From Bacteroidales bacterium (GTDB lineage Bacteria; Bacteroidota; Bacteroidia; Bacteroidales; UBA932): 49,043 nt of DNA. The stretch is from positions 1-49,043 of the forward strand of contig JAFROJ010000033.1 in assembly GCA_017429765.1 (NCBI GenBank), written 5' to 3'. Position numbers and translations under genes: made by a program. Shown piece after piece: positions 1-48,804 of the stretch (its first letter is position 1; each line of letters begins with the position of its first letter). The notes beneath the pieces are model-generated. The model was not told the DNA's origin and did no database searches. It was given only the letters and a program-made list of their open reading frames with translations.

Positions 1-653
1 AATATCCCCACGCGACCTTCGCCGCGATGGTCTCCCGTCTGGATTATTATGTGGGCGACCTGGTGGCCAATTTGAAGGAGCATGGGGTGTATGACAACAC
101 CGTTATCATATTCTCGAGCGACAACGGTCCTCACAGGGAGGGCGGCGCCGATCCCGACTTCTTCGACAGCAACGGCCCCTGGAGGGGGTACAAGAGGGAT
201 GTCTATGAGGGCGGGATCCGGGTCCCGATGATAGTGTCGTGGCCCGGCCACCTCGCTGAAGGGGAGGAGACCGGCTTCATGTGCTCGTTCTGGGATATGA
301 TGCCGACCCTGCGTGACCTCACCGGCTCCGCGCCCGCGGAAGGTCTGGACGGGGTTAGCCTCCTGCCGCTGCTCAGCGGCCATGGCCGCCAGAAGGAACA
401 CGACTACCTCTATTTCGAGTTCCAGGAACTCGGCGGGCGGCAGGCGGTCCGCAAAGGCCCCTGGAAACTTGTGCGTATGGACATAAGGGGAGAGAACCCG
501 AGACACGAGCTTTATAACCTCGACTCCGATTCCGGGGAAACCACTGATCTGGCGATGTCCGAGCCCGCCAAGGTCGAGGAGTTGAAAGCCCTGATGGAGG
601 AGGCGCACACGCCGAATCCTGACTTCCCCCTGCTACCGGAAGAATGGAAATAA
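1..653 (+). CDS. Sulfatase, C-terminal part (5' end outside window)
   Basis: The reading frame is open from base 3, upstream of the first internal ATG at 27, and the protein begins mid-domain (YPHATFAAMVSRLDYYVG), so the gene starts before the window. The visible part is the C-terminal half of a type I (alkaline-phosphatase fold) sulfatase: FSSDNGPH supplies the metal-binding Asp-Asn of the family and RGYKRDVYEGGIRVP is the usual conserved Lys/Gly segment, followed by the small C-terminal subdomain with the common ELYNLDSDSGETTDLA stretch. It would hydrolyse a sulfate ester, probably on a host or plant glycan, in the periplasm. The FGly motif lies outside the window, so the Ser or Cys type cannot be read. 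It is followed after 15 nt by a second sulfatase on the same strand, suggesting an operon. The substrate cannot be told. Confidence 0.93.
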   Translation, partial: YPHATFAAMVSRLDYYVGDLVANLKEHGVYDNTVIIFSSDNGPHREGGADPDFFDSNGPWRGYKRDVYEGGIRVPMIVSWPGHLAEGEETGFMCSFWDMMPTLRDLTGSAPAEGLDGVSLLPLLSGHGRQKEHDYLYFEFQELGGRQAVRKGPWKLVRMDIRGENPRHELYNLDSDSGETTDLAMSEPAKVEELKALMEEAHTPNPDFPLLPEEWK

Positions 654-668
654 GTCACTTATCATTAA

Positions 669-2216
669 ATGAATAGGAAAATCGCGGCCTGCGCCGCCAT
701 CATGCCCGCGGCCCTTGTCCCGTCGCTCTCTCCCGCCCAGGAGAAGGGAGGGGTCGAGCGTCCCAATGTGATAATAATCCTGGCGGACGACCTCGGTTAC
801 GGTGACCTCGGATGCTACGGCGCCAGGAACGTCGTCACACCGAATGTCGACACCGTCGCCTCGCGGGGCACGCGTTTCGTCAACGCCTACGCCACCGCCT
901 CCGTCTCAACACCGTCCCGGTATTCACTCCTCACAGGCCAGTACGCCTGGCGGAGGAATGACACCGACATAGCCGTGGGAGACGCCGGGATGATCATCCG
1001 TCCGGAGCAATACACGATGGCCGACCTTTTCAAGAATGCCGGCTATTCGACCGCCGCGTTCGGCAAATGGCATCTCGGCCTCGGTGACAAGGGAGGGGAG
1101 CAGGACTGGAACGCCCCGCTTCCTTCAGGGCTCGGAGACATCGGTTTCGACTATTCCTACATCATGGCGGCGACTGGCGACCGCGTACCCTGCGTGTTCA
1201 TAGAGAACGGCAAGGTGGCGGACTGGGACCCCTCCGCTCCGATAGAGGTCAGTTACAAAAAGCCATTCGAGGGTGAGCCCCTCGCCAAGGACCATCCTGA
1301 ACTGCTCTATAACCTCAAATCGACCCCTGGCATCGGCCATAACCAGGCCATAGTCAACGGGATAGGCCGCATCGGCTACATGAAAGGCGGAGGCCGAGCT
1401 CTCTGGAAAGACGAGAACATAGCGGACTCCATCACTGTCCATGCCCTGAAGTTCATTGAGGAGAACAAGGACCGGCCGTTCTTCATCTATCTGGCCACCA
1501 ACGATGTCCACGTGCCGCGGTTTCCTCACGAGCGTTTCAGGGGCCGGAGCGGTATGGGGCTCAGGGGCGACGCGATAGTCGAGTTCGACTGGATGGTCGG
1601 AGCGGTCACGAGGGAACTGGACCGGCTCGGCCTCGCGGACAACACCATCCTGATCATCACCAGCGACAACGGGCCTGTCCTTGAGGACGGGTATATGGAT
1701 GACGCCGCCAATCTTCTCAACGGCCACGACCCGGCAGGGAACCTTCGGGGGAACAAATACGGGGTCTATGAGGCCGGCGCCCGTGTGCCGGCTATAGTCA
1801 GATGGCCCGGCAAGGTCACCGAAGGCGCTATCTCGGAGGCTCTTGTGTCCCACGTGGACCTGTTCTCCTCATTCGGAGTCCTGCTGGGCGGCAGGATGCC
1901 CCGAGGGGGAGCTCCGGACAGCCGGAATTCCCTTTCCGCCTGGATGGGAAGGGATCCTTCCGGCCGTGAATATGTCATCGAGCAGGCCAACAACCGTACC
2001 CTGTCCGTCCGGACGAGGGATTGGAAGTATGTCGAGCCAAGCGACGGCCCCGCGGAATACAGTTGGGCCCCTGGTAGCGAGACCGGCTACATGAAAGTCC
2101 CCCAACTCTTCAACCTCAAGACTGACCCGAGGGAGAAAGTGAATGTCGCCGCCGACAATCCGGATGTCTTACGGATGATGCGGGAGATCCTTGATAAGGA
2201 GAGAGGCGAGCGATAG
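669..2216 (+). CDS. Periplasmic sulfatase, serine type
   Basis: 515-aa type I sulfatase with a cleavable N-terminal signal (hydrophobic to about residue 22, ending SLSPAQ). Asp40-Asp41 in IILADDLGYGD are metal ligands. The active-site motif S80-T-P-S-R84 with Gly90 is the serine form of the (C/S)xPxR signature, so Ser80 must be converted to formylglycine by a radical-SAM maturase; such a gene lies at 23592-24914. FGKWHLG and TSDNGP are further catalytic segments. Length is normal for the family. It follows the preceding sulfatase by 15 nt and ends 15 nt before a strong hairpin, so it is the last gene of its operon. Antisense open frames over it are shadows caused by the high GC. Substrate is unknown; sulfated mucin or plant or algal glycan are possibilities, not shown. 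Confidence 0.95.
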   Translation: MNRKIAACAAIMPAALVPSLSPAQEKGGVERPNVIIILADDLGYGDLGCYGARNVVTPNVDTVASRGTRFVNAYATASVSTPSRYSLLTGQYAWRRNDTDIAVGDAGMIIRPEQYTMADLFKNAGYSTAAFGKWHLGLGDKGGEQDWNAPLPSGLGDIGFDYSYIMAATGDRVPCVFIENGKVADWDPSAPIEVSYKKPFEGEPLAKDHPELLYNLKSTPGIGHNQAIVNGIGRIGYMKGGGRALWKDENIADSITVHALKFIEENKDRPFFIYLATNDVHVPRFPHERFRGRSGMGLRGDAIVEFDWMVGAVTRELDRLGLADNTILIITSDNGPVLEDGYMDDAANLLNGHDPAGNLRGNKYGVYEAGARVPAIVRWPGKVTEGAISEALVSHVDLFSSFGVLLGGRMPRGGAPDSRNSLSAWMGRDPSGREYVIEQANNRTLSVRTRDWKYVEPSDGPAEYSWAPGSETGYMKVPQLFNLKTDPREKVNVAADNPDVLRMMREILDKERGER

Positions 2217-2231
2217 AATAGTGAAAAAACG

Positions 2232-2259
2232 AAGAGTCCGGCCAAACGGCCGGACTCTT
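2232..2259. terminator. Bidirectional intrinsic terminator between sulfatase operon and rplS-tRNA operon
   Basis: A perfect 12-bp inverted repeat (AAGAGTCCGGCC / GGCCGGACTCTT) with a 4-nt loop lies between convergent units. On the minus strand the hairpin is followed by CGTTTTTT, so it should end the rplS-tRNA transcript; on the plus strand it is followed by only three T residues and could end the sulfatase transcript less efficiently. Confidence 0.85.
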
Positions 2260-2270
2260 TACAATCTGTG

Positions 2271-9791: not shown

Positions 9792-10891
9792 ATCCGTTTC
9801 CTTAGATAGGCAAATATACCATTTCCTTTGAATATCGCCAAAGGGATGATCCAACCTGGGAATAGCGCTGGGGCGGGAACACCCTGATGGCTTTCAATAA
9901 AGCTCTGGATGTCAGCGACTTCCGTCTTTGTTGCCAACTTCCTGTACTCCTTGTGCGCCTCTGTCACGGACTTGAACAGCGAGACTCTTCCGGTCAGGAG
10001 GTAAACCATGGCCGAGCAAATGTCGAGGAAATACCTGAAGGATATGGTCCTGCCCGCCTTCCTGACCGCCCTCACGGCCGCTTTCGACGGGGTTTTCCCG
10101 GAATATTCAAGGGCGTGGGTCTTGGCGAGGTTGTTCCTTAGAGTCAAGAGGTTGTTGCGGTAGTTCAGCCTGAGCTTCCAGGGGGAGTCGTTGGGCAGGG
10201 TGCCGCCTCCCACGTGATAGACCACCGAATCGGGGACCACGTTGACAGACCTTCCCTCAAGCTGGAGCCTCCAGCAGAGGTCTATCTCCTCCATGTGGGC
10301 GAAAAATCTCCCGTCAAGCCCTCCGGCTTTCTCGAAGTCATCCCTCCTCACCATGAGGCAGGCCCCTGTGGCCCAGAAGACCTTGGCGGGGGAGTCGTAC
10401 TGCCCCTCGTCCCTCTCAAGCCTTTTAAGGACCCTCCCCCGGCAGAAAGGATAGCCGTAACGGTCTAGCAGGCCGCCGGCGGCCCCGGCGTACTCGAAAC
10501 TACCCCTGTCTTGCCATGAGTGGAGCTTCGGGGCGCAGGCGGCGCATTCGGGATGGCTCTCCATCCACTTGACAAGCGGCTCAAGCCAGCCTTCGGTCAC
10601 CTCGATGTCCGAGTTGATGAGAGTGAAAAACTCAAGGTCGGCTCCATCGGGGGAATCGACCAGGGCCTTGAAGGCAAGGTTGTAACCTCCGGTGAAGCCG
10701 TGGTTCCTGTCGAACCGGATCAACCTGGTCCCCGGGAACTCCCCGGTCATGAGCTCGACCGACCCGTCAGTGGAGCCGTTGTCAGCGACCACCACCTCGG
10801 CGCCCTCCGGCAAACTTGCCAGAAGGCCCGGAAGGAACCTCTTGAGAAAGTCCCTGGTGTTCCAGTTGAGTATGACGACAGCGGTCCTCAT
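9788..10891 (-). CDS. Glycosyltransferase family 2
   Basis: 367-aa GT-A fold glycosyltransferase that transfers a sugar from a nucleotide donor, typically to polysaccharide or lipid-linked glycan. N-terminal VVILNWNTRDFLKRFLPGLL and VVVADNGSTDGS are the donor-binding elements, LINSDIEV holds the DxD-like motif, and FWATGACLMVRRDDFEKAGGLDGRFFAHMEEIDLCWRLQ is the typical rhamnosyl-type acceptor region (ED/EEIDLCWR). A hydrophobic stretch near the C terminus (SFRYFLDICSAMVYLLTG) may anchor it at the membrane. It is the first gene of an operon with trkA (ATGA overlap). A -7 box (10898-10905) ends 6 nt before the ATG, so the message is probably leaderless or nearly so. Confidence 0.9.
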   Translation of the reverse strand: MRTAVVILNWNTRDFLKRFLPGLLASLPEGAEVVVADNGSTDGSVELMTGEFPGTRLIRFDRNHGFTGGYNLAFKALVDSPDGADLEFFTLINSDIEVTEGWLEPLVKWMESHPECAACAPKLHSWQDRGSFEYAGAAGGLLDRYGYPFCRGRVLKRLERDEGQYDSPAKVFWATGACLMVRRDDFEKAGGLDGRFFAHMEEIDLCWRLQLEGRSVNVVPDSVVYHVGGGTLPNDSPWKLRLNYRNNLLTLRNNLAKTHALEYSGKTPSKAAVRAVRKAGRTISFRYFLDICSAMVYLLTGRVSLFKSVTEAHKEYRKLATKTEVADIQSFIESHQGVPAPALFPGWIIPLAIFKGNGIFAYLRKRI

Positions 10892-14434: not shown

Positions 14435-16286
14435 AACGGATCACACGATTAAAAAGAATATATTCGCACTTCTTGCAATAGGAGCGTTGCTGATCACCGC
14501 CTGCGACTTCAACGAGGAGCCCAAGTCCTCCGCCAGTGTCGACATGGTGTTCAGTTCCGAGGGTGGTCTGCAGACCTATGCATATTCATTCTACCAAGTC
14601 CTCCCGACTTACGCTGACGCTTCCCACAGGAACGCCACCCTGGACTACGGTCCCAAGCAGTCCGTGAGCGGAATGGAGGTTGGTGCCTACACGGTCAACA
14701 CTTCCACCAGCTGGTCATGGACCGCGCTGCGTAACATCAACTTCTTCCTCGAGAACAATGTCGACGAGAGGGTTCCCGCGGCTGTCCGTAACAACTACAG
14801 CGGAATAGCCCGCCTGTTCAGGGCCCGTTTCTACTTCGACAAGCTCGTCACCTACGGCCCTGTCCCGTGGATCGACAAGGTCTTCAACTCCCCGGAGGAT
14901 CCCGACCTTTACAATCCCCGTGACACCAGGGATCTCATTATCAGCAAGATAATCGAGGATCTCGATTTCGCCTACAACAACATCACGGTCGCCAGCGCCA
15001 CTTCCAACTCCTCGACCGTCAACAAGTGGATCGCGATGGGCTTCAAGTCCCGCGTCTGCCTGTTCGAGGCCGCCTGGAGAAAGTACCACGCCAACGACCA
15101 GCTTGACGTGGCCCGCACCGGCTGCACCCAGTACTCGGCGAACGACCTCTACAACCTGGCCGCCCAGGCCGCGAAGGAGGTTATCGACAAGGGCCCCTAC
15201 AAACTCCATGGTGGCACAGCCTACAAGGGTGGTGGTACCGGAGCCTACCGCGAGCTCTTCACTTCCATCGACACCCAGACCGACGAGGTCATGCTCGCCA
15301 TCGTCTGCGACGCCGCCATCCAGCTCGGAGAGAACAACTGGTGGTGGAACTCCTCCACCTATGGTCCTCACCTCGGGATGTCCCGCAAGTTCGCGAAGAC
15401 CTACCTGAACATCGACGGCACCCCGTACAACGAGTTCAACGACGACGGCTCCTACAAGCAGTTCTTCGAGGAGACCAAGGGTCGTGACCCTCGTATGAAC
15501 ATGACCCTGCGCGCCTATGACTACATCCGCAAGACCCCTGCAGGCGACGCTCTCACGCCCGCCAACTTCCAGGGTCACGCGCTGTCCGGCTACCAGGTGA
15601 CCAAGTTCGTCATGGATGACATCAGCTACGACGACGCCCGTACCAACGACAACAACACTCCTCTGATGCGTCTGGGAGAGATCTTGCTGAACTACGCCGA
15701 GGCTAAGGCGGAGCTTGGCACCCTCACCGACGCCGACTGGGCCCAGACCGTGGGCGCCCTGCGCAAGAGGGCCGGAATCACCGGCGGTACCGCCGCCACC
15801 GGCACCCTGACCGCGAGACCCACCGAGGCTGACCCGTACATGGCCGCCTATTATCCCCCGATGGCCAACAATCCCGTGCTGCTCGAGGTCATGCGCGAGA
15901 GGGAGATCGAGCTCGCTTACGAGGGCTTCCGCCTGATCGACCTCAAGCGCTGGGGTCTCTGCAACCTCTGGGTCGAGGATCCTTGGGAGGGAATATTCAT
16001 CCCCGCGATCAACGCCCCGGTCGACCTCAACGGCGACGGTAAGGCTGACGCTTACTTCTACGACACCGACTCCATCGGTGACTCCTCACAGGCCGCCATC
16101 GGTGTCTATGTCGGTACGAAGAAGAACAACTACCTGAATGTCAAACCTGTCGATGGTGGTTACTTCATCTACTACGCCATGCCCGGCAGGGATTGGCCTC
16201 AGAGGCAGTATCTCTATCCTATCCCTCAGGTCGTTCTCGATCTCAACTCGGACAAGAACCAGTTGACCCAGAACCCCGGTTGGTAG
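14412..16286 (+). CDS. SusD/RagB-like surface lipoprotein (non-ATG start)
   Basis: About 612-624-aa SusD-family lipoprotein that caps the SusC barrel and binds the ligand. N terminus KKNIFALLAIGALLITAC gives a type II signal with the lipidated Cys after LLITA; a charged DFNEEP tail suggests surface export. N-terminal SusD-like and C-terminal RagB/SusD segments are clear (RARFYFDKLVTYGPVPWIDK, PLMRLGEILLNYAEAKAELG, LLEVMREREIELAYEGFRLIDLKRWG). There is no ATG at a sensible place: the family-like start is the in-frame ATT at 14448 (IKKNIF), 13 nt after the susC stop; the only common alternative is TTG at 14412, overlapping susC by 23 nt. I give the TTG coordinate but consider ATT, or an ATG misread as ATT, equally likely. 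Confidence 0.93.
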   Translation: MVSTSLSKTDHTIKKNIFALLAIGALLITACDFNEEPKSSASVDMVFSSEGGLQTYAYSFYQVLPTYADASHRNATLDYGPKQSVSGMEVGAYTVNTSTSWSWTALRNINFFLENNVDERVPAAVRNNYSGIARLFRARFYFDKLVTYGPVPWIDKVFNSPEDPDLYNPRDTRDLIISKIIEDLDFAYNNITVASATSNSSTVNKWIAMGFKSRVCLFEAAWRKYHANDQLDVARTGCTQYSANDLYNLAAQAAKEVIDKGPYKLHGGTAYKGGGTGAYRELFTSIDTQTDEVMLAIVCDAAIQLGENNWWWNSSTYGPHLGMSRKFAKTYLNIDGTPYNEFNDDGSYKQFFEETKGRDPRMNMTLRAYDYIRKTPAGDALTPANFQGHALSGYQVTKFVMDDISYDDARTNDNNTPLMRLGEILLNYAEAKAELGTLTDADWAQTVGALRKRAGITGGTAATGTLTARPTEADPYMAAYYPPMANNPVLLEVMREREIELAYEGFRLIDLKRWGLCNLWVEDPWEGIFIPAINAPVDLNGDGKADAYFYDTDSIGDSSQAAIGVYVGTKKNNYLNVKPVDGGYFIYYAMPGRDWPQRQYLYPIPQVVLDLNSDKNQLTQNPGW

Positions 16287-16362: not shown

Positions 16363-17298
16363 ATGATAAGACTGTCCAGATTGTTTTTGGCCATCGCAGG
16401 GTCGGTTTCTCTCCTCACCGGATGCGGAAAGGAGAAGCCTCTGGATTTTGACATCGACCGTCCTTCTTACGATAGCAATCAGGCTGACCTACAGAAGTAT
16501 CCAGCTTCGGGAGAGATCAAGATAATCAGTTTCAACGTCCGTTACGGTACCGCCAAGGAGACCAACTCGAGCAACAATTGGTCGAACCGGTCCGCGGCCT
16601 GCCTGGCGATGATAAAAGACCACAAGCCGACCTGCATAGGCTTCCAGGAGGCCGTCTATGACATCCAGTTCCTATGGTTCAAGGATCAGCTCAAGGACGA
16701 GTACGACGGATTCGGGGTAGGTCGCGACAACGGCAAGGACAAGGGGGAGTGCATGGGCATCCTTTACCGGAAGTCCGAGGTCAAGTTGATCGACGGCGGC
16801 ACTTTCTGGCTGTCCCCGACCCCTGACCTCTGCTCCAAGGCTGTCGAATGGGACGCGGCCTGCTTCCGCACCGCCACCTGGGGAATATTCGAGGTCATCG
16901 CCACCGGCAAGCGTTTCTGCTACATCAACACTCATCTCGACCACAAGGGCTCTAAGGCCCGCTCGGAATCGATGAAACTGATCGCGGAGCGCTTCCGGCA
17001 GTACAATCCTGACTACAGCCTTCCCCAGTTCCTCTCCGCCGACTTCAACGCCCAGCCCTCGGACGCGATATTCCAGAGTATCCCCAACATGCGCAACTCA
17101 AGGGACCTGGCCCCTTCCGGCAAGACCGACAACAACACCACCTACAACGCCTGGGGCAACAACAGCAATTCCCACATAGACAACATCTTGTTCTCCTCTC
17201 CCGCCCAGGTGAAGGAATATCACACCATAACAGAACCTTACAACAGCGTGGCGTACCTGTCGGATCATTTCCCGATCTACGCCATCTTCTCGCTTTAA
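16363..17298 (+). CDS. Endonuclease/exonuclease/phosphatase-family lipoprotein
   Basis: 311-aa exported lipoprotein: MIRLSRLFLAIAGSVSLLTGC has a lipobox with Cys21. The rest is the DNase I-like EEP fold used by phosphodiesterases, inositol phosphatases and sphingomyelinases: IISFNVRYGT, CIGFQEAVYD with the metal-binding Glu, CYINTHLDHKG with catalytic His, FLSADFNAQPSD with Asp-x-Asn, HIDNILFSS and the terminal YLSDHFPIYA (Ser-Asp-His). All core catalytic elements are present. It probably cleaves phosphate ester or diester bonds at the cell surface or in the periplasm. ATG 16363 is chosen over an upstream in-frame ATT-containing frame because a promoter box ends just before it. The phosphatase-glycosidase fusion follows after 4 nt, so the two form a unit. 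Confidence 0.9.
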   Translation: MIRLSRLFLAIAGSVSLLTGCGKEKPLDFDIDRPSYDSNQADLQKYPASGEIKIISFNVRYGTAKETNSSNNWSNRSAACLAMIKDHKPTCIGFQEAVYDIQFLWFKDQLKDEYDGFGVGRDNGKDKGECMGILYRKSEVKLIDGGTFWLSPTPDLCSKAVEWDAACFRTATWGIFEVIATGKRFCYINTHLDHKGSKARSESMKLIAERFRQYNPDYSLPQFLSADFNAQPSDAIFQSIPNMRNSRDLAPSGKTDNNTTYNAWGNNSNSHIDNILFSSPAQVKEYHTITEPYNSVAYLSDHFPIYAIFSL

Positions 17299-28855: not shown

Positions 28856-28920
28856 GGCAGGAGTGGGGATGAGAGAGAGCCGCGGGAGCGGGGGGTGTAT
28901 GAATATTCAGAGGCTTTTGT

Positions 28921-30918: not shown

Positions 30919-32379
30919 ATGACAATCAAAGATCTAGAGCCAAAGGCCGTTTGGGAGAATTTCTATGGCCTGACAAGGGTTCCCCGCCCTTCAAAGCACG
31001 AGGGAAAAGTCCAGGAATACCTGCTCCAGTGGGGCAAGGACCATGGTGTTGACGTCAAGCGCGACGACACCGGCAACATCATATTCACAGCCCCCGCCAC
31101 TCCCGGGTTCGAGAACCGCAAGGGCGTCATCATGCAGGCCCACATGGACATGGTTCCCCAGAAGACCGCTGAGACCAAGCACGACTTCCTGACCGATCCC
31201 ATCGAGACCGAGATAAAAGGGGAGTGGGTGGCCGCCAAGGGTACCACCCTCGGAGCGGACAACGGAATCGGGGTCGCCCTCGCCCTGTCCGTCCTTCAGG
31301 ACAAGACCCTCAAGCACTGCCCGCTGGAGGCCCTCATCACCTATGACGAGGAGACCGGCATGACCGGAGCCAACGCCCTAAAGCCCGGCGTCCTGAAGGG
31401 TGACATCCTCTTGAACCTCGACTCCGAGGAGGAGGGTGAGCTCTGCACCGGATGCGCCGGAGGAATCGACGGCAGCGCCGACTTCAGGTACAGGACCTAT
31501 AAGACCCCCGAGGGATATGTCTGCTACAAGATCACGGTCAAGGGTCTCAAGGGAGGCCACTCCGGAATGGATATCTCCCTGTTCAGGGGTAACGCCAACA
31601 AGGCCGTCTGCCGTATCCTCAAGGCTGTCATTGACGAGTTCCCCGGCGTGAAGGTCGCCGGCATCACCGGAGGATCACTGCGCAACGCCATCCCCTTCGA
31701 GGCCGAGGCTGTCATTCTCATCCCCTCCGCCGAGTCCCGCAAGGTCAAGGCCCTGGTCGGGAAGACGTTCGCCGACTGCCAGTTCGAGTTCCAATATTCA
31801 GATCCCGAGATGGTCATGTTCTACGACAAGGTCGCGAAGGTCGCTCCCCGTTACATCAGCCCGAAGGTCATCGTGAGCGCCCTCAAGGCCATCCTGGCCT
31901 GCCCTCACGGCGTGCGCAGGATGAGCGACACCATCCCCGGTCTGACCGAGACTTCCACGAATATGGCCATCATCCGCGCGGAGAAGGGACACCTGACCGT
32001 CCACTCGCTCACCAGGAGCTCCATCGACGCCGCCAAGATGTTCCTCGCCGACCAGATCCGCTACGTCTTTGAGCTAGCCGGCGCTGAATATTCACTCTCA
32101 GGAGCCTACAGCGGCTGGACCCCGAAGCTCGGCACGCCGATGATCAAGGTCCTCGAGGACACCTACAAGAAACTCTTCGGGAAGGACCTGAAGATCACCG
32201 CCACCCACGGAGGCCTCGAGTGCGCCATCATGGGAGCCAAGTATCCCAACTGGGAGATGGTCTCGATAGGACCCACCATCGTGCACCCGCACTCCCCGGA
32301 CGAGAGGGTGAAGATCGACACGGTCGCCCAGACCTGGGAGTACCTCAAGGCGGTCCTTGAGGCGGTCCCGGAGAAGTAG
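30919..32379 (+). CDS. pepD: Aminoacyl-histidine dipeptidase (PepD)
   Basis: 486-aa M20-family dinuclear zinc dipeptidase (PepD is about 485 aa in E. coli), which cleaves Xaa-His and other dipeptides in the cytoplasm. Metal ligands are visible: MQAHMDMVPQ (His and Asp), LGADNGIGVALAL (bridging Asp), YDEETGMTGA (catalytic Glu and ligand Glu), and LNLDSEEEGELCTGCAGG. The lid and dimerisation region follows with GGHSGMDISLFRGNANK, and TATHGGLECAI…GPTIVHPHSPDERV closes the domain with the last His ligand. It starts 12 nt after the DUF4831 stop. Confidence 0.96.
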   Translation: MTIKDLEPKAVWENFYGLTRVPRPSKHEGKVQEYLLQWGKDHGVDVKRDDTGNIIFTAPATPGFENRKGVIMQAHMDMVPQKTAETKHDFLTDPIETEIKGEWVAAKGTTLGADNGIGVALALSVLQDKTLKHCPLEALITYDEETGMTGANALKPGVLKGDILLNLDSEEEGELCTGCAGGIDGSADFRYRTYKTPEGYVCYKITVKGLKGGHSGMDISLFRGNANKAVCRILKAVIDEFPGVKVAGITGGSLRNAIPFEAEAVILIPSAESRKVKALVGKTFADCQFEFQYSDPEMVMFYDKVAKVAPRYISPKVIVSALKAILACPHGVRRMSDTIPGLTETSTNMAIIRAEKGHLTVHSLTRSSIDAAKMFLADQIRYVFELAGAEYSLSGAYSGWTPKLGTPMIKVLEDTYKKLFGKDLKITATHGGLECAIMGAKYPNWEMVSIGPTIVHPHSPDERVKIDTVAQTWEYLKAVLEAVPEK

Positions 32380-35785: not shown

Positions 35786-37450
35786 TTACTTCTCGTCGTC
35801 GGGCTTGAAGAATTTGTACTTGAAGCGGCGGATCTTCTGGGTGGCGGTCTTCTCGAAGTCCTCCTTCATCACGTCGACCTCGCCGATGTTCGACTGCTTG
35901 CCGACACGCTTGTTGACATATTCCATGACCGACTTCTTAAGCGACTCGATGTTCTCGAAGAGCTTCTCCTCCTTCTCGATGACGTTCCAGTCGATGACGT
36001 CCTCGTCGAACTTCACCAGCGCCACCAGTTTCCCGTCACGCTCAATGACGAGGGACTCGTTGACCCCGCGCATGTTGTTGATCACCTGCTCGATCTCCTC
36101 GGGATAGATGTTCTCGCCAGACGGGCCCACGATCATGTTCCCGAGGCGCCCCTTGATGTAATAGCGCCCCTTGGAGTCCATGCAGGCCAGGTCGTTGGTG
36201 CGGAACCAGCCGTCGTCCGTCAGGGCGGCGCGGGTGCGCTCCGGGTCGCGGTAATAGCCGAGCATGACGTTGTCGCCCTTCGCCACGATCTCGCCCTCCC
36301 CGGTGGCCGGATCGACATTCTGGAGCCTCACCTCGACATTGTAGGCCGGCACCCCGATGGAACCGACGGCCGTCTTCCCGACGCACGCGTTTGTGATCAG
36401 CGGGGCGGTCTCGGTGAGTCCGTAGCCGATGGCGTAGGGGAAGCGGGCCTTGAGAAGGAACTCCTCCACGGTAGGGTCGAGCTTTGAGCCGCCGATCCCG
36501 AAAAACTTCAGCTTGCCGCCGAAAGCATTGTAGACCTTCCGCCCCACAAGGAAATAGAGCAGCCAGGGAGCCTTCCGTCTCATCCAGGACAGGGTGCGGC
36601 TCTTCTCGATGGTGGGAGACACGCTGTTGCGATAGATTTTCTCGATGATCAGCGGCACCGAACACATGATCGTGGGACGGACCTTCTTCATCGCACCCAT
36701 CAGGATCGACGGTGTCGGGGGTTTCTTAATATAGTACACGCAGCCTCCCACGAACAGGGGATAGAGGACGCTGAAAGCCATCTCGTAGGTGTGGGACATC
36801 GGGAGGATCGAGAGCCAGCGGTCCCTCTTCCCGGCCGGCTGGGCGTGATAGGCGGCGATGATGTTCTGGCAGAAGTTGCGGTGGCTGAGCATTACCCCCT
36901 TGGCGTTGCCGGAAGTTCCTGACGTGTAGATGATTGAGGCGAGGTCATCAGCCTGGGGCTCGGAGGATCGGCCCTCGCAGGTGAAAGCGTTGTCGTCCTT
37001 CTTGATGAACTCGAAGGTCTCGATGTCAATCACGAGGGTGAGCCTGTCACGGACCTCGTCCGAGATTATCTTCAGGAGCCTCTTTGACACGAATATGGCC
37101 TTGCACTCGGAGTGGGTGAGAATATTCGTGACCTCGCTCTCGGAGGAGTCCGGGAGAATCGGCACCGTGACCCTGCCGAAGGGAACACAAGAGAACATCG
37201 CCACAGTCCAGTTGGGCATGTTGTTGGACAGGATGCCCACCTTGTCCCCGGCGCTGATCCCGAAGCGGTTGAAACGCTGGGAAAGCTCCAGGCACTTGTG
37301 CTTGAAAGACTCGTAGGTGTATTCCTGACCGCCGTCCACGAAGCGGGACAGAGGTCTGCCACCGTAGGTGTCGGTCGCCATCTCGAAGAGTTTCGAGAGG
37401 GTGGTCACATAATTTTCCTTGCTCTGTCTGAATGGGTTACGGATCGCCAT
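35786..37450 (-). CDS. Long-chain fatty-acid-CoA ligase-like AMP-binding protein
   Basis: 554-aa ANL-superfamily adenylating enzyme that would activate a fatty acid with ATP and CoA. The P-loop-like SIIYTSGTSGNAKGVMLSHRNF is intact, with YALGYGLTE-type IGYGLTETAPLITNAC, TNDLACMDSKGRYYIKGRLGNMIVGPSGENIYPEEIE (hinge) and the C-terminal Lys region (EDFEKTATQKIRRFKYKF). Length is about 50 residues below the largest family members. ATG 37450 gives MAIRNPF; another ATG lies 5 nt upstream in a different frame. It follows the PlsC-like gene by 10 nt, and terminates at 35690-35737. Confidence 0.93.
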   Translation of the reverse strand: MAIRNPFRQSKENYVTTLSKLFEMATDTYGGRPLSRFVDGGQEYTYESFKHKCLELSQRFNRFGISAGDKVGILSNNMPNWTVAMFSCVPFGRVTVPILPDSSESEVTNILTHSECKAIFVSKRLLKIISDEVRDRLTLVIDIETFEFIKKDDNAFTCEGRSSEPQADDLASIIYTSGTSGNAKGVMLSHRNFCQNIIAAYHAQPAGKRDRWLSILPMSHTYEMAFSVLYPLFVGGCVYYIKKPPTPSILMGAMKKVRPTIMCSVPLIIEKIYRNSVSPTIEKSRTLSWMRRKAPWLLYFLVGRKVYNAFGGKLKFFGIGGSKLDPTVEEFLLKARFPYAIGYGLTETAPLITNACVGKTAVGSIGVPAYNVEVRLQNVDPATGEGEIVAKGDNVMLGYYRDPERTRAALTDDGWFRTNDLACMDSKGRYYIKGRLGNMIVGPSGENIYPEEIEQVINNMRGVNESLVIERDGKLVALVKFDEDVIDWNVIEKEEKLFENIESLKKSVMEYVNKRVGKQSNIGEVDVMKEDFEKTATQKIRRFKYKFFKPDDEK

Positions 37451-38031: not shown

Positions 38032-39969
38032 TTAAATGTTCACATCCTCGAGCTCCACCTCGGACTTGAGGTTCGCCCTGATGAAGTTCTGGCGGTCGAC
38101 AGTGTTGTCGCCCATGTAGAATTCCATGATGTCCGAGATCGACTCCTCGTCGGAGAGCTTGATGAGATCCAGCCTCATGTTCTCGCCTATGAAGTCCACG
38201 AACTCGTTCGATGAGATCTCGCCCAGTCCCTTGAAGCGGGTGATCTGCACGGCGGTCTTGAGGGCCTTGACGGCCTTCTCCTTCTCCTCGATGGAAAAGC
38301 AGTAGCGCCTCTCCTTCTTGTTCGCCACCCTGAACAGAGGCGTCTGGAGGATATGGATATGCCCGCGGCGGATCAGGTCGGGATAGTATTTCATGAAGAA
38401 GGTGACCACCAGCATCCTGATGTGCATCCCGTCGTCGTCCGCGTCGGTAGCCACGATGATGTTGTTGTAGCGGAGGTTGTCGAGGTCGTCCTCGACGCCG
38501 AGGGCGGAGATCAAAAGGTTAAGCTCCTCATTCTCAGCCACCTTTTTGCGACCTTCCTTGTAGCAGTTGATGGGCTTTCCCCTGAGGCTGAACACGGCCT
38601 GGTAGTTGGCGTCCCTCACCTTGGTGATGGTGCCGGAAGCGGAGTCACCCTCGGTTATGAATATGCTCGATTTCTCACCCATCTCCTCCTTCCCCTTGGG
38701 AAGCTTGTCGCTGAAGTGGAAGCGGCAGTCGCGGAGTTTCTTGTTGTAGAGATTCGCCTTCTTGTTCCTCTCGCGGGTCTTCTTCTGGATGCCGGCGATC
38801 TCCTCGCGCTCAGCCTGGGACTCCTTGATCTTGTTCTCGATGATGGGGACAAGGTCCAGATGGATCCTGAGGTAGTTGTCCAGGTGACGGGCCACGAAGT
38901 CGTTGACGAAGGACCTGATGGTCGGCCCCCGGTCGATCTCAAGTGAGCCGTCGGCGTTCTGGATCTTCTTGCCCTGGTTGTCGGTCTTGTATTTCTCCCA
39001 CATGTAGGTGGAGCCGAGCTTGGTCTTGGTCTGGCCCTCGAAATTGGGCTCCTGGATCTGGATGCTGATGGCCCCGATGATGCCCTGGCGGCAGTCCTCA
39101 GGCTTGTAGTCCTTCTTGAAATAGTCCTTCAAGGTCTTGGCTATAGCCTCCCTGAAAGCGGCGAGGTGGGTGCCTCCGTCGCGGGTGTTCTGGCCGTTGA
39201 CGAAGGAGGAGATGTTCTCCCCGTAGGAGTTGCCGTGGGTGAGGACTATCTCGATGTCGTCGTCCTCGAGGTGAATGGGCTCGTAGAGGGGAGTCTCGGC
39301 CATATTCTCGCGCACGAGGTCGAGGAGGCCGTTCTCGGATTTGTAGGGGGTGCCGTTGAGGACGAGGGTCAAGCCTTTCTTAAGGTAGGAATAGTTCTTG
39401 ACCATGGTCTCCACGTAGTCCAGGTTGAACTCGAAGCCTCCGAACATCTCCTTGTCGGGGGTGAACACCACGAGGGTGCCGTTCTTCTCGTTGACCTTCT
39501 CCTTCTTGCCGCTCCCGGTCAGCTCGCCCCTTGTGTAGCTGGCCCAGGAACTCTCTCCCTCACGGAAAGACTCGACATAGAAGCTCTCGGAAAGGGCGTT
39601 GACAGCCTTCGTTCCGACTCCGTTCAGTCCGACGGATTTCTTGAAGACCTTGTCGTCGAATTTTCCTCCGGTGTTGAGCTCGCTGGTGGCCTTCACGACC
39701 GATCCGAGGGGAATCCCGCGGCCGAAGTCCCTGACCTTGACCTGGTTCCCTTCGACGTCGATGAGGATCTTGTTGCCGAATCCGGCTGAATACTCATCGA
39801 TGCAGTTGTCCACGATCTCCTTCAGGAGAACGTAGATGCCGTCGCCGGGGTTGGACCCGTTCCCGAGGCGGCCGATGTACATTCCGGGTCTGCGCCGGAT
39901 GTGCTCCACCCCTTCCAGGGTCTTTATATGGGATTCGTTGTAGTCTTCAAAAGTCAGTTTCTCTGCCAT
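38032..39969 (-). CDS. parE: DNA topoisomerase IV subunit B
   Basis: 645-aa ATPase subunit of a type IIA topoisomerase that decatenates daughter chromosomes. GHKL ATPase: EHIRRRPGMYIGRLGNGSNPGDGIYVLLKEIVDNCIDEYSAGFG, DFGRGIPLG and VGLNGVGTKAVNALS. Toprim/catalytic lobe: SIFITEGDSASGTITKVRDANYQAVFSLRGKPINCYK, and DADDDGMHIRMLVVTFF. The mostly Bacteroidota form SSIFITEGDSASGT favours ParE over GyrB (EGDSAGGSA form). ATG 39969 (MAEKLTFEDYNESHIKTLEG) is chosen because the 35 residues upstream are non-family. ParC is not next to it; the downstream genes are lipid-acyl genes. Confidence 0.95.
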   Translation of the reverse strand: MAEKLTFEDYNESHIKTLEGVEHIRRRPGMYIGRLGNGSNPGDGIYVLLKEIVDNCIDEYSAGFGNKILIDVEGNQVKVRDFGRGIPLGSVVKATSELNTGGKFDDKVFKKSVGLNGVGTKAVNALSESFYVESFREGESSWASYTRGELTGSGKKEKVNEKNGTLVVFTPDKEMFGGFEFNLDYVETMVKNYSYLKKGLTLVLNGTPYKSENGLLDLVRENMAETPLYEPIHLEDDDIEIVLTHGNSYGENISSFVNGQNTRDGGTHLAAFREAIAKTLKDYFKKDYKPEDCRQGIIGAISIQIQEPNFEGQTKTKLGSTYMWEKYKTDNQGKKIQNADGSLEIDRGPTIRSFVNDFVARHLDNYLRIHLDLVPIIENKIKESQAEREEIAGIQKKTRERNKKANLYNKKLRDCRFHFSDKLPKGKEEMGEKSSIFITEGDSASGTITKVRDANYQAVFSLRGKPINCYKEGRKKVAENEELNLLISALGVEDDLDNLRYNNIIVATDADDDGMHIRMLVVTFFMKYYPDLIRRGHIHILQTPLFRVANKKERRYCFSIEEKEKAVKALKTAVQITRFKGLGEISSNEFVDFIGENMRLDLIKLSDEESISDIMEFYMGDNTVDRQNFIRANLKSEVELEDVNI

Positions 39970-42650: not shown

Positions 42651-45461
42651 ATGAGAAGATTATTGATCATTGTCGCGTCTGCCGCCATTGTCCTTTCCTC
42701 TTTCGCGGCCGGCGCGCAACAGCTTCCCAACGATCCCGCTGTGCGTAAAGGCCAGCTGGAGAATGGCTTGACCTATTACATCAGGCACAACGACAAGCCC
42801 GCCCAGAGGGCTGAGTTCTACCTCGCGACCAATGTCGGCGCGATCCAGGAGACCCCGGATCAGGACGGCCTGGCCCACTTCCTGGAGCACATGTGCTTCA
42901 ACGGCACGAAGAACTTCCCCGAGAAGGGTATCCTGAACTGGTTGCAGAGCATCGGCGCCTCTTTCGGAGGCAATGTCAACGCCTCGACCGGCATCGACCA
43001 GACACAGTACATGCTGAATAACATCCCGCTCATCCGCGAGACTGTGGTCGACACCTGCCTCCTTATTCTCCACGACTATTCCCATTTCGTGACCAACGAT
43101 CCCGTGGAGATCGACAAGGAGAGACCCGTCATCATCGAGGAGAGACGAAGCCGCCGCGACGCCCAGTGGAGGACTTTCGAGCGCTCTCTTCCTATTATTT
43201 ATGGCGACACCAAATATTCAACCTGCACCCTGATCGGAAGCCAGGAGAACCTGGAGACCTTCAAGCCCGAGAGCCTGGTCAATTTCTACCGGACCTGGTA
43301 CCGTCCGGACATGCAGGCGGTCGTGGTCGTCGGTGACGTGGATGTCGACGCCGTGGAAGCCAAGATCAAGAGTATTTGGTCGGATATTCCGGCGGCCGAG
43401 AACCCCAAGCCAAAGGACATGATCACGATGAAGGACTTCACCGAGCCCCGCGTGGGGATCTTCACCGACCCGGAGACCACCGTCCCCACAGTCGAGCTTC
43501 TATGGATCAGCGACGCCCGGGACGAGGCTATGAACAGCACCCCGACCGGATATTCCCTCGACTTGATCGAGACCATTGTCTCGACTGTGATGTCGGAGCG
43601 TTTCAATGATGTCACCGCCAAGGCGGACGCCCCTTATCTCCAGGGAGTCTTCGGGATCGGCAAGGTCTGCGAGGCCTTCGAGGCTGTCATGGGGCAGGTC
43701 GCCCTCAAGGAGGACAACATCGCCGGCGGCTTCAAGGATTTCCTTATCGAGATCGAGAAGATGAGCCGTCACGGCTTCTCCGACGCTGAGGTAGGGAGGG
43801 CTAAGGACAACATCCTCGCTTCCCTGGAAAAGGCTGTCAACGAGGCTGAGACCAGGAAGAACCCGGAGTTCGTCCATCCCCTGGTCAGCAATTTCTTCGA
43901 CAATGAGGCCTACATGGAGCCCCAGGTCGAGTATGATCTCGCCAAGGCTTTCCTCGACCAGATCGACGCCGGGATCCTCAATCAGGTCATCTCAGAGATG
44001 ATTCCCGAGGATAATCTGGTGATAGTTTACAGCGGCCCAGAGAAGGCCGGAATAGCGACCCCGACCAAGGAGGCCCTGCTGGCCGCCTTCGATGAGGCGA
44101 AGGCCGCCGAGATCGAGGCTCCCGCCGAGGAGGCCGCCGCGGAGCCCTTCCTTGACCCTTCCGCCCTGAAGGGCGCCAAGGTCAAGAAGACCCGTTCCTC
44201 AGCCTATGGCTCGACAGAGTGGACCTTGAAGAACGGAGTCAAGGTCCTTGTCCTCCCCACTGACTATAAGAAAGACCAGATCCTCTTCAACATCTTCAAG
44301 CCGGGCGGTAAGACTTTGATTCCCACCGAGGATCTCGACTCATTTGACGGCTCTATCTACAGCGTGTTCGAGTCGATGCAGGGTATCTCCAAGTTCAAGG
44401 GGACCGAGGTCACCAAGATGCTTTCCGGCAAGAATATGTCCGAGAGGTCTTACATCGACGGATTGTACAACGGCGTGACCGGATCGTCCTCAGTGAAGGA
44501 TCTCGAGACCGCCTTCCAGCTCATGTACCTTGAGTTCACGGATCCGAGGTTCGACAGCGAGGAGTGGGACAACGCTGTCTCACAGTTGAAAGCCATTCTT
44601 CCGAACGCCCTCGGCACACCATCTTTCATTCTCCAGAAAGAGATGAATGACTTCTTCTACGGGAACAACCCCAGGAACAAGTTCATCTCGATGGAGACCT
44701 TGGACAAGGCCAGCGTGGCTGTCGCCGAGAAGAATTACCGTTCCTTGTTCGCCGACGCGGCCGGTGCCGATATGGTCATCATCGGTGATGTCGATCTCGA
44801 GACACTCAAGCCTCTGGTCGAGAAATATGTCGGTTCTCTCCCGAAGGGCAAGAAAGCCCCTAAGATCAAGGATGTCACTCCCCGTCTGGTCAAAGGTGAG
44901 AACTTGAGGACCATCCAGACCGACATGGAGACTCCAAAGTCTACCGTGATCCAGATGTACACGGATTACAGCCCTTACACCGTGAAAGCGGAGGTGATGG
45001 CCAAGGCGGTCAGCTATGTGCTCGACCAGATCTACACCGAGACCCTTCGCGAGGACGAGGGCGGCACCTACGGCGCCTCGACCAGCGCTAGCGCCGGACT
45101 CGAGCCCGAGCCGATCCGCTTGATCCAAGTCGCGTTCGCGTGCAAGCCTGAGATGACCGGGAAGCTCAAGACAATCGCCCGCGAAAAGTTCCGCGAGCTC
45201 TCCGAGAACGGCCCCACCGACGAGCAGCTCACCCGCACGATCGAGAACTTCAAGAAGAATATTCCCGAGAACCGCATCAACAACAGCTACTGGATGAACA
45301 ATCTTGTGAGGTACCTCAAGTACGGTCTCGACTACGACAAGGACTATGAGGAGGCTGTCTCCGGCATCTCCAAGGAGGCGATCCGGGAGGCCGCGGCCAA
45401 GTTGTACAACTCCGGTAACTTCATCGAACTCGTTCAGGTGCCCGGCGAGACCGCCGAGTAA
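42651..45461 (+). CDS. M16-family zinc peptidase (pitrilysin-like)
   Basis: 936-aa exported metallopeptidase. A signal peptide (MRRLLIIVASAAIVLSSFAAGAQ) leads to the N-terminal M16 domain with the inverted zinc motif H76-F-L-E79-H80 and a distal Glu in the EIDKERPVIIEERRSRR region. The second, inactive M16 repeat runs from about residue 520 (STEWTLKNGVKVLVLPTDYKKDQI) to the end (ENFKKNIPENRINNSYWMNNLVRYL). A low-complexity Ala/Glu linker (AKAAEIEAPAEEAAAEPF) joins the halves. Periplasmic peptide breakdown is the likely role. It begins right after the ferredoxin terminator, and a terminator-like inverted repeat follows at 45465-45508. Confidence 0.95.
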   Translation: MRRLLIIVASAAIVLSSFAAGAQQLPNDPAVRKGQLENGLTYYIRHNDKPAQRAEFYLATNVGAIQETPDQDGLAHFLEHMCFNGTKNFPEKGILNWLQSIGASFGGNVNASTGIDQTQYMLNNIPLIRETVVDTCLLILHDYSHFVTNDPVEIDKERPVIIEERRSRRDAQWRTFERSLPIIYGDTKYSTCTLIGSQENLETFKPESLVNFYRTWYRPDMQAVVVVGDVDVDAVEAKIKSIWSDIPAAENPKPKDMITMKDFTEPRVGIFTDPETTVPTVELLWISDARDEAMNSTPTGYSLDLIETIVSTVMSERFNDVTAKADAPYLQGVFGIGKVCEAFEAVMGQVALKEDNIAGGFKDFLIEIEKMSRHGFSDAEVGRAKDNILASLEKAVNEAETRKNPEFVHPLVSNFFDNEAYMEPQVEYDLAKAFLDQIDAGILNQVISEMIPEDNLVIVYSGPEKAGIATPTKEALLAAFDEAKAAEIEAPAEEAAAEPFLDPSALKGAKVKKTRSSAYGSTEWTLKNGVKVLVLPTDYKKDQILFNIFKPGGKTLIPTEDLDSFDGSIYSVFESMQGISKFKGTEVTKMLSGKNMSERSYIDGLYNGVTGSSSVKDLETAFQLMYLEFTDPRFDSEEWDNAVSQLKAILPNALGTPSFILQKEMNDFFYGNNPRNKFISMETLDKASVAVAEKNYRSLFADAAGADMVIIGDVDLETLKPLVEKYVGSLPKGKKAPKIKDVTPRLVKGENLRTIQTDMETPKSTVIQMYTDYSPYTVKAEVMAKAVSYVLDQIYTETLREDEGGTYGASTSASAGLEPEPIRLIQVAFACKPEMTGKLKTIAREKFRELSENGPTDEQLTRTIENFKKNIPENRINNSYWMNNLVRYLKYGLDYDKDYEEAVSGISKEAIREAAAKLYNSGNFIELVQVPGETAE

Positions 45462-47613: not shown

Positions 47614-47631
47614 TATGGAGGATTAGCGACT

Positions 47632-47844
47632 ATGCCAATAATAGTAAATGTCGATGTGATGCTGGCGAGGCGGAAGATGACTTCCGCCGAGCTGGCTGAA
47701 AAGATCGGCATCTCGGCCGTGAACCTGTCGATCCTGAAGACGGGAAAGGCCAAGGGTGTCCGGTTCAGCACTCTCGACGCGATCTGCAAAGCCCTTGATT
47801 GCCAGCCTGGCGATCTCCTGGAGTACCGCCCGCCAACCGAATAG
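47632..47844 (+). CDS. Small XRE-family regulator (HTH, Cro/CI type)
   Basis: 70-aa protein that is one helix-turn-helix: MLARRKMTSAELAEKIGISAVNLSILKTGKAKGVRFSTLDAICKALDCQPGDLLEY. Proteins of this type (YozG-like) are stand-alone transcription regulators, often beside a DUF2975 membrane gene, which is not seen here. TGGAGG precedes the start. It lies 18 nt after flotillin and 9 nt before the next gene, so it may be cotranscribed with both. Confidence 0.92.
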   Translation: MPIIVNVDVMLARRKMTSAELAEKIGISAVNLSILKTGKAKGVRFSTLDAICKALDCQPGDLLEYRPPTE

Positions 47845-47853
47845 CGTCCTGAT

Positions 47854-48804
47854 ATGAGAAAGTTATTGACTTTGTCTCTGCTGTTCTGGGCATCAGCTTG
47901 CCTGATGGCCCAGAACATCCCGTCTGATTCCCAGTGGTACGACGGGTGGAACAATTATGTCGCCTCTTACAGGGAGGACGGGAAGATTCTCATGCAGGCC
48001 ATGGCCGAGGGTGAGAAGCTTGAGTTCCAGTTATTCCCTGTAAAGGACGAGGACTACGATTACATCCTCCTCGAGGGGCCCGACAAGACCGCCGAGCTTC
48101 CTTATCCGGAGGAGTTGACTGTCAAATACTTCCACGAGGATGGCAAAGAGGTTCTATGCCTCTATGAATATGGGGAGCTCACCGGTGTCATGGTCAAGAC
48201 CATCCTTCCCTCAAGGGTTAACAGCGCCTTGAACCTGAACACTCGCCTGAACGGGACCTACAGGGTCGATCCCTATGGGAACACCATAGTCATCAGCGAC
48301 GGTGTCGGCACTTTCGACGGCAGGAAGGTCTATTTCAAGATGGAGACCTTCAACGACCTGGCCACCGGTGTCCTGAAAGTGGATAGCGGCTCTCCGGTCG
48401 AGGGATCCTGGGAGTTCGTCCCGACTGTCGCCGGATTCCACGTCTATCCCGGCACCTTCGACTCCTATCCGACCTTCCAGCGCACAGGGGAGCCTTTCAC
48501 TCTCATCGAGTCGGATCCCGCCAAAGGACGCTTCGATTTCGCCTCCAGGATCATTCTCGACAACGCCTGCCTCAGGCGCTACAAGAAATCCACCCTCCGC
48601 CTGATGCGGGGCGAGATCCTGGCCCGTCACGGCTATGTCTTCGACTCGGAGGACCTTCAGGCCTATTTCGCCAAGCAGCCCTGGTACAAGCCGGTCGCCT
48701 CGAACGAGGGGATCGAGCTCTCCTTCATCGAGAGGTTGAACGTCGACCTCATCAAGAACGCCGAGTCCGACCCCGATCACGACCAGTTCGTCAGCGAGGA
48801 GTAA
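47854..48804 (+). CDS. Exported YARHG-domain protein of unknown function
   Basis: 316-aa exported protein (signal MRKLLTLSLLFWASACLMAQ). The last 100 residues hold a YARHG domain: LRLMRGEILARHGYVFDSEDLQAYFAKQPWYKPV (A-R-H-G with W at the end), a small extracellular domain of unknown role. The middle (about 130-235, NTRLNGTYRVDPYGNTIVISDGVGTFDGRKVYFKMETF…YPTFQRTGEPFTLIE) is a beta-rich region with no family I recognise. It is the last gene of the flotillin-XRE group. Confidence 0.85.
   Translation: MRKLLTLSLLFWASACLMAQNIPSDSQWYDGWNNYVASYREDGKILMQAMAEGEKLEFQLFPVKDEDYDYILLEGPDKTAELPYPEELTVKYFHEDGKEVLCLYEYGELTGVMVKTILPSRVNSALNLNTRLNGTYRVDPYGNTIVISDGVGTFDGRKVYFKMETFNDLATGVLKVDSGSPVEGSWEFVPTVAGFHVYPGTFDSYPTFQRTGEPFTLIESDPAKGRFDFASRIILDNACLRRYKKSTLRLMRGEILARHGYVFDSEDLQAYFAKQPWYKPVASNEGIELSFIERLNVDLIKNAESDPDHDQFVSEE

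What the first reader, a model, noticed from the sequence alone, without database searches (positions are those of the whole stretch)
109..48172. Hexamer GAATAT/ATATTC strongly over-represented and apparently shaping codon choice
Reading both strands I count about 90 occurrences of GAATAT or ATATTC in 49 kb, about a dozen as the full palindrome GAATATTC (for example 10099, 15990, 16882, 18839, 27731, 28900, 29243, 32087, 37121, 45258). At about 60 % GC base composition predicts about 10. The alternative GAATAC/GTATTC, which also encodes Glu-Tyr, I see only about ten times. In genes that otherwise prefer GAG, TAC and ATC, Glu-Tyr is often GAA-TAT and Ile-Phe ATA-TTC. The motif is missing from susC (3.3 kb), from flotillin, from rpsF-rpsR-rplI and from the AT-rich DUF1016 gene, where chance should give it more often. 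It behaves like a selected signal: a nucleoid-protein site, an uptake or recombination signal, or a modification target.
Basis: partly seen in the sequence, partly recalled or inferred. Interest (0 to 1): 0.72.

Follow-up and report, generated by a model that had tools for sequence, protein, structure and literature searches.

The report
Iterated GAATAT word in gut Bacteroidales
A gut bacterium of the Bacteroidales carries one six-letter DNA word several times more often than its genes require, and a cousin carries a different but related word, which hints at an unknown machinery that reads a lineage's own DNA.

Summary
Confirmed and widened. The window holds 92 GAATAT/ATATTC and 11 GAATATTC against 12, 19 and 41 expected by Markov orders 1 to 3. 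In 377 kb of the same genome the word exceeds a synonymous-codon shuffle 4.2-fold (594 vs 141.5) in all six frame/strand classes, so codon pairing does not explain it. Spacing is random, strand bias absent, and filling of permitted positions is even across genes and independent of neighbouring words. The 'missing' genes offer few permitted positions. The word marks one clade of rumen/gut Bacteroidales MAGs. Two other genomes instead iterate CATATG (4,230 vs 79 and 3,353 vs 39 control). Both words contain ATAT, so they look like dialects. Words are lost more slowly, and near-misses gain the word somewhat faster, than control codons; one hypermutable step cannot do that. A HIP-style matching methyltransferase was not found in the CATATG genomes (five Pfam families). 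I favour an unidentified sequence-reading factor that biases fixation at every site, as uptake sequences do. The existence of the word is near certain; the mechanism is inferred.

The parts
108..48171 (.). 92 GAATAT/ATATTC words (48 on +, 44 on -), about 1.9 per kb
   Evidence: positions and counts; Poisson-like spacing, CV 0.98, in the 377 kb sample that includes the window
10101..10108 (.). palindrome GAATATTC
15991..15998 (.). palindrome GAATATTC
16883..16890 (.). palindrome GAATATTC
18841..18848 (.). palindrome GAATATTC
20939..20946 (.). palindrome GAATATTC
27731..27738 (.). palindrome GAATATTC
28901..28908 (.). palindrome GAATATTC
29243..29250 (.). palindrome GAATATTC
32086..32093 (.). 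palindrome GAATATTC
37120..37127 (.). palindrome GAATATTC
45257..45264 (.). palindrome GAATATTC
38032..39969 (-). GyrB/ParE-like topoisomerase gene, used to find and place relatives (not itself part of the signal)
   Evidence: (PF00204, PF01751)

Best explanation
GAATAT, more fully (G/T)GAATAT and strongest as GAATATTC, is a clade-specific iterated genome word. SHOWN: it is a property of the DNA, independent of reading frame and strand; permitted positions are filled evenly and independently of each other; the filling persists while background codon usage drifts; another lineage carries CATATG at a similar density, and both words contain ATAT. INFERRED: a sequence-specific, perhaps two-fold symmetric DNA-reading protein, whose flank preference differs between lineages, gives alleles carrying the word a small advantage in fixation (roughly 0.7 to 2.4 scaled units by my estimate). 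The route I think most likely is self-DNA recognition during DNA uptake or recombination, a molecular drive like that of DNA uptake sequences. The reader protein is unknown.
For: Codon shuffle 594 vs 141.5; GAATAT phases 168/23, 46/6.7, 76/35 and ATATTC phases 170/58, 55/9.2, 79/9.5. Genome-wide GAATATTC 288 vs 8 for the reversed control. Permitted positions are filled 17 to 60 % by class, not over-dispersed over 274 genes, and regardless of the distance to the next word (0.85 to 1.24 from 7 bases to 2 kb). Filling of Glu-Tyr is 0.38 to 0.64 in 13 clade genomes and 0.45 in the own genome while the GAA share runs from 0.15 to 0.51. In 9 hand-picked pairs on non-overlapping branches GAATAT losses were 27 of 287 (60.6 expected) and gains 27 of 177 (17.0); ATATTC losses 13 of 265 (53.0), gains 13 of 125 (9.6). 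Graded flanks: GGGAATAT 11.2x down to TAGAATAT 1.1x. CATATG 4,230/79 and 3,353/39 in two relatives; 225 vs 40 and 70 vs 12 by codon shuffle. The own genome avoids the other dialect (CATATG 0.36) with the word's own codons held fixed. A ComEC-type gene (PF03772) is present in 24 of 25 genomes.
Against: No reader protein was found. The ComEC-type gene is equally present in genomes without the word. Known uptake sequences are 9 to 10 bases and not palindromes (PMC1939737, passages); CATATG is a palindromic hexamer without flank preference. Intergenic enrichment is modest (63 vs 24 or 37.5), and other A/T-rich words such as AATATA are as strongly enriched there. Sites are conserved no more than most control words. 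In one search gains are raised only 1.35 to 1.6-fold, the loss- and gain-based strengths for ATATTC disagree (about 2.3 vs 0.65), and the pairs are unpolarised. I know of no competence in this group (recall).
Confidence: 0.4

Rival explanations
1. HIP-like word: a resident DNA methyltransferase modifies the word and a methylation-directed repair process creates and protects it, as proposed for HIP1 in cyanobacteria.
For: Same look: iterated, strand-symmetric, lineage alternatives, near-misses at end positions enriched. The own genome has three PF00145 matches, one beside a Vsr gene, plus a type I MTase with a specificity subunit and an MmeI-like type IIG enzyme. G443, which enriches ATAT words, has one PF07669 match over cut-off.
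Against: G444 and G445 have no PF01555, PF02086, PF00145 or PF02384 match and only sub-cut-off PF07669 matches. PF00145 and Vsr matches are both absent from enriched G427, G430, G431 and G434.
Confidence: 0.2
2. An abundant nucleoid or topology protein binds the word, and selection on global DNA packaging favours each copy.
For: Even genome-wide placement, independent sites, ATAT core with TpA steps.
Against: A six-base word that differs between close lineages is unusual for nucleoid proteins (recall); only weak 10.5-bp phasing (0.086 vs 0.047 null); one clade member, G437, lacks the word (0.73x).
Confidence: 0.2
3. Context-dependent mutation or repair bias alone makes the word.
For: Site conservation like that of control words; even filling of permitted positions.
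Against: Losses are slowed to 0.25 to 0.45 of expectation, and the biased changes include transversions (ATC or ATT vs ATA in ATATTC), so neither deamination nor one hot near-miss explains it. The specificity spans 6 to 8 bases with a sharp lineage difference.
Confidence: 0.15
4. Codon-pair or tRNA effect on Glu-Tyr and Ile-Phe.
For: The largest absolute excess is in frame 0.
Against: Every other frame on both strands is enriched 2.2 to 8.3-fold, and intergenic DNA modestly too.
Confidence: 0.02

Closest known systems
DNA uptake sequences and their dialects in Neisseriaceae (PMC3630211 and PMC1939737, passages seen)
   Same: Thousands of copies per small genome (5,918 in 2.4 Mb of Kingella oralis in PMC3630211; here 4,230 CATATG in one 2.6 Mb genome), clade-specific dialects that share a short core (CTG there, ATAT here), graded over-representation of near-matches.
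   Different: 9- to 10-mers, non-palindromic, bound by ComP in Neisseriaceae; here a hexamer or palindrome, in Bacteroidales, with no known reader and no uptake test.
HIP1 and alternate HIPs of cyanobacteria (PMC4390886, abstract and section 3.4 part 1 read)
   Same: Short iterated words, lineage replacements, deviations at the end positions.
   Different: GC-rich palindromes with matching methyltransferases; here AT-centred words, one not a palindrome, and no methyltransferase match over cut-off in the two CATATG genomes.
Chi recombination sites (features recalled)
   Same: Over-represented oligonucleotide.
   Different: No strand polarity: 343 vs 322 over 21 stretches, heterogeneity p 0.76, correlation with GC skew -0.17; the other dialect is palindromic.

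Membership tests
DNA uptake sequence (DUS/USS) | word strongly over-represented genome-wide | tested here: met
DNA uptake sequence (DUS/USS) | clade-specific dialects following phylogeny and sharing a core | tested here: met
   GAATAT confined to one 28-row clade (not in all its rows), CATATG in the pair L074+L075, ATAT in both; 53 loci outside the clade do not rank GAATAT among their first five words
DNA uptake sequence (DUS/USS) | enhances uptake or transformation | not testable with these tools
   needs a cultured strain
DNA uptake sequence (DUS/USS) | DNA-import channel ComEC present | tested here: met
   PF03772 in 24 of 25 genomes, word-poor ones included, so not discriminating
DNA uptake sequence (DUS/USS) | ComP-type pilin receptor | not tested
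HIP (highly iterated palindrome) | word is a palindrome | tested here: inconclusive
   CATATG yes; GAATAT is not, though GAATATTC is its strongest 8-mer form, 17.3x
HIP (highly iterated palindrome) | methyltransferase specific for the word in the genome | tested here: not met
   CATATG genomes G444 and G445: no match over cut-off in PF01555, PF02086, PF00145, PF02384, PF07669. Other MTase families untested, genomes are drafts. For GAATAT genomes: several MTases, none of the five families in every one, targets unknown
Chi site | polarity with replication | tested here: not met
   no strand bias by stretch or with GC skew
Very short patch repair (Dcm/Vsr) product | word-rich genomes carry Vsr | tested here: not met
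   Vsr absent in enriched G427, G430, G431, G434, G192, G134 and in G443 to G445

The most novel reading that the evidence does not exclude
Some lineages of a large Bacteroidales genus (probably Cryptobacteroides) mark their own genomes with a switchable short word (flank variants around ATAT), read by an unknown factor outside the tested methyltransferase families that makes every matching position in the chromosome drift toward the current dialect: a further iterated-word system beside uptake sequences and HIPs, with no earlier report from Bacteroidales in my searches.
Probability: 0.45. Interest if true: 0.8.

Novelty: new variant of a known kind. Interest (0 to 1): 0.64.

Why it matters
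Why some bacterial genomes fill with one short word is, to my knowledge, explained for uptake sequences and still open for HIP1. Here a clade keeps its word at a steady level under changing codon usage, one member lacks it and another lineage has a different one, with hundreds of sequenced relatives, so a reader gene could be sought by comparing gene content. If the word is a self-recognition mark, it would predict which gut species can exchange DNA.

Tried and rejected
Chance and low-order composition: rejected. Codon-pair explanation: rejected by frame and strand independence. Chi-like polarity: not seen. Regular spacing: spacing is exponential (CV 0.98), weak 10.5-bp phasing only. Density-dependent need for about one site per kb: no saturation. 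Deamination of a methylated near-miss: transversions are biased too and losses are slowed. Vsr or Dcm as cause: patchy presence. A third lineage with the CATATG dialect (G203, 2,028 copies vs 41 control) did not hold up: 18 vs 10.8 by codon shuffle in 32 kb of a 43.6 % GC sample. GAATAT enrichment in other Bacteroidales families: 14 genomes, 4 to 20 kb each, ratios 0.5 to 1.6, highest z 3.4. Bending of proteins: Glu-Tyr dipeptides are in excess in the own genome (1.27), but so are Asp-Tyr (1.23), and Ile-Phe are not (0.94), so this is not claimed. Literature: searches returned lists of 10 to 15 papers out of 10 to 8,601 holding the terms (open-access library only); no title or abstract start in those lists reports such a word in Cryptobacteroides or Bacteroidales. 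One search was on Vsr.

Limits: gene calls come from my own simple script, not a standard annotator, and missed the DUF1016 gene; most tests use 377 kb of the 2.36 Mb own genome; relatives are draft MAGs and some samples are short. Ortholog pairs share sites and are not independent. One search uses 9 pairs that I picked by hand; it is unpolarised, so its gain and loss counts are equal by construction and only their rates are compared; positions with no base-level change or fewer than 5 base cases were skipped, and their number was not printed. Clade locus L066 was left out of the ortholog set. Several G handles are probably the genomes of named loci (equal CATATG counts and sizes: G088/G431, G134/G435, G192/G436, G060/G438, G325/G444, G107/G443) and are not independent. 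The script stopped at G132 (2.5 kb stretch); G020 and G022 were rerun, G132 was not.
Full report
Observation. The window has 48 GAATAT and 44 ATATTC on the + strand and 11 full palindromes GAATATTC; the alternative GAATAC/GTATTC occurs 10 times. GC is 57.3 %. Markov models of order 1, 2 and 3 expect 12.0, 19.3 and 41.0 words. The whole genome (2.36 Mb, 75 contigs; the window is the listed stretch of contig 17) has 288 GAATATTC against 8 for the reversed control. The hexamer itself was not counted genome-wide; in 377 kb it lies at 604 distinct places, 1.6 per kb.

Not codons. In that 377 kb (20 fetched stretches plus the window, 274 called genes) a synonymous-codon shuffle within genes gives 141.5 where 594 are seen, and 5.2 palindromes where 58 are seen; the word is first of all hexamers. 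All three codon phases on both strands are enriched, 2.2 to 8.3-fold. Intergenic DNA (34 kb) has 63 against 24 (order 1) or 37.5 (order 2); there the word is only sixth, behind words such as AATATA and TAATAA. Glu-Tyr is GAA-TAT in 168 of 373 cases although GAA is 15 % of Glu codons; Ile-Phe is ATA-TTC in 170 of 281 although ATA is 19 % of Ile codons.

Shape of the word. By codon shuffle GGAATAT is 7.4x and TGAATAT 6.7x, but AGAATAT 2.1x and CGAATAT 2.6x; GAATATTC is 17.3x. With the word's own codons held fixed, near-misses at the last base (GAATAA 2.29, GAATAG 2.45) and AAATAT (2.07) stay enriched, whereas other ATAT contexts are depleted (CATATA 0.29, GATATA 0.29, GTATAT 0.21, CATATG 0.36). 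The preference is graded around A-ATAT.

Placement. Gaps between words are exponential (CV 0.98). There is no strand bias (343 vs 322, heterogeneity p 0.76) and no clear relation to GC skew (r -0.17, 21 stretches). Given the protein sequence, 17 to 60 % of permitted positions hold the word, by phase, without over-dispersion over 274 genes (chi2 184) and without a trend along genes; the 13 genes with GC3 of 0.85 or more are low, 26 vs 40.9. Filling does not depend on the distance to the next word (0.85 to 1.24 from 7 bases to 2 kb), so there is no sign that one word per kb is enough.

Relatives. A scan of named genomes with the GyrB-like protein gave 80 loci of Bacteroidales MAGs, many from ruminant guts, two titled Candidatus Cryptobacteroides. 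That the own genus is Cryptobacteroides is an inference: same-genus genome G134 has the same counts and listed places as G435, the genome of locus L064, titled Candidatus Cryptobacteroides faecihippi. GAATAT ranks among the five most codon-shuffle-enriched hexamers in 16 of 80 loci, all inside one fully supported clade of 27 loci and the window, and in 0 of the 53 loci outside it; several of the other 11 in-clade loci are short. With 54 to 102 kb per genome, 15 clade genomes gave 2.0 to 3.5-fold in 13 (first word in 11, second in 2), 1.7 in G438 and 0.73 in G437. G437 branches near the clade's base, so it may have lost the word or never had it. In 14 genomes of other Bacteroidales families the ratio was 0.5 to 1.6. 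Among 400 genus genomes, the own included, GAATATTC counts ran from 3 to 511.

A second dialect. Loci L074 and L075 showed CATATG instead. Whole-genome counts are 4,230 vs 79 (reversed control) in G444 and 3,353 vs 39 in G445; the other 41 of 43 genomes had 44 to 1,368. Codon shuffle gives 225 vs 40 and 70 vs 12, with no flank preference. G443 (1,368 vs 69) enriches ATAT with looser flanks, CATATG 4.3x and GAATAT 2.4x, and G430 does so in part. GAATATTC reads GA-ATAT-TC and CATATG reads C-ATAT-G: both are two-fold symmetric around ATAT. GAATAT genomes and CATATG genomes each favour their own flanks; pooled loci L076 to L124 lie at 0.86 to 1.26 for the ten N-ATAT-N words. The strong CATATG form was confirmed only in G444 and G445; G203, a candidate, failed.

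Force. Single sites are conserved about as much as synonymous control words. In frame 0 GAATAT has odds ratio 2.4 (GAATAC 2.5, GAGTAT 5.3, GAGTAC 21, GACTAT 3.4) and ATATTC 18.5 (ATCTTC 16.5). In frames 1 and 2 the ratios of shared to expected sites, 1.5 to 3.2 for the two words, lie within or near those of phase-matched controls (1.1 to 6.7); the odds ratio of GAATAT in frame 1 is very high (298), with several controls undefined. Against this, the level of filling is steady: Glu-Tyr filling is 0.38 to 0.64 over 13 clade genomes and 0.45 in the own genome although its GAA share has fallen to 0.15. In 9 hand-picked pairs on non-overlapping branches GAATAT was lost in 27 of 287 opportunities (60.6 expected from all codons of those residues) and gained in 27 of 177 (17.0); ATATTC was lost in 13 of 265 (53.0) and gained in 13 of 125 (9.6). 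Exceptions (identity 0.6 to 0.8) are the Asn position of GAATAT in phase 2 (loss 0.58 vs 0.49), the Tyr position (loss 0.32 vs 0.33, though gain 0.50 vs 0.26) and some classes with under 15 words. Slow loss with faster gain fits a fixation bias of roughly 0.7 to 2.4 scaled units (my estimate) and not a single hot near-miss. Glu-Tyr dipeptides are in excess in the own genome (1.27; clade 1.08; loci without the word 0.73), but Asp-Tyr rises likewise (1.23, 1.07, 0.93) and Ile-Phe does not, so I claim no effect on proteins.

Methyltransferases. No PF01555 match lies in G000, G443, G444 or G445 (33 genomes), nor PF02086 (32 genomes). PF00145 has three matches in G000 and none in G443 to G445 (24 genomes); PF02384 two in G000 and none in G443 to G445 (24 genomes); PF07669 two in G000, one over cut-off in G443 and only sub-cut-off matches in G444 and G445 (24 genomes). 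In G000 one PF00145 gene is followed by a Vsr gene (PF03852 1.9e-31, TIGR00632 4.7e-43). PF00145 and Vsr matches also lie close together in G416, G422, G423, G425 and G429, near pyrF-like genes in all six and clpX/clpP-like genes in these five (these names are mine from the sequence, not from a search). Vsr is absent from word-rich G427, G430, G431, G434, G192 and G134. G000 also has a type I MTase with a specificity subunit and an MmeI-like type IIG enzyme read as two overlapping frames. None of the five families is found over cut-off in every word-rich genome. Other methyltransferase families were not tested.

Reading. What is shown is a DNA-level, strand-symmetric, lineage-specific pull toward one word, with a second lineage using another flank of the same core. 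What is inferred is a sequence-reading factor. The pattern works most like DNA uptake sequence dialects, which share a three-base core and follow phylogeny (PMC3630211, passages), and resembles HIPs of cyanobacteria (PMC4390886, abstract and section 3.4 part 1), whose link to a matching methyltransferase was not met here for CATATG. A ComEC-type gene is present in 24 of 25 genomes, word-rich or not, so uptake is possible but untested. I do not file it as a DUS or a HIP.

Noticed in passing
L209:5488-7233 (G000 contig 2): Dcm-like C5 methyltransferase followed by a Vsr mismatch endonuclease; similar pairs in five other clade genomes.
   Followed up: partly
L191:214-3004 (G000 contig 34): MmeI-family type IIG restriction-modification enzyme read as two overlapping frames (667 + 286 aa), the target-recognition domain in the second.
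   Followed up: partly
L073, L140-L144 (G443): CATG almost absent: 30 vs 460.5 expected by codon shuffle (0.07), as restriction avoidance would give.
   Followed up: no
own 377 kb sample: GTATAC absent (0 vs 33 expected) and CTGCAG rare (26 vs 98.5) in coding DNA.
   Followed up: no
own 377 kb sample: Second-tier words TCCCGA, ATCCCG and CGGGAA are 1.75 to 1.9 times the codon-shuffle expectation even with GAATAT masked.
   Followed up: no
window:34636-35676: AT-rich (43 % GC) DUF1016/YhcG PDDEXK nuclease gene without the word; possibly acquired (inference from GC).
   Followed up: no
   Followed up: partly
L078 and L083: CATCGG/ATCGGC 2.2 to 3-fold over codon shuffle in two members of one small clade, a possible further word.
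   Followed up: no
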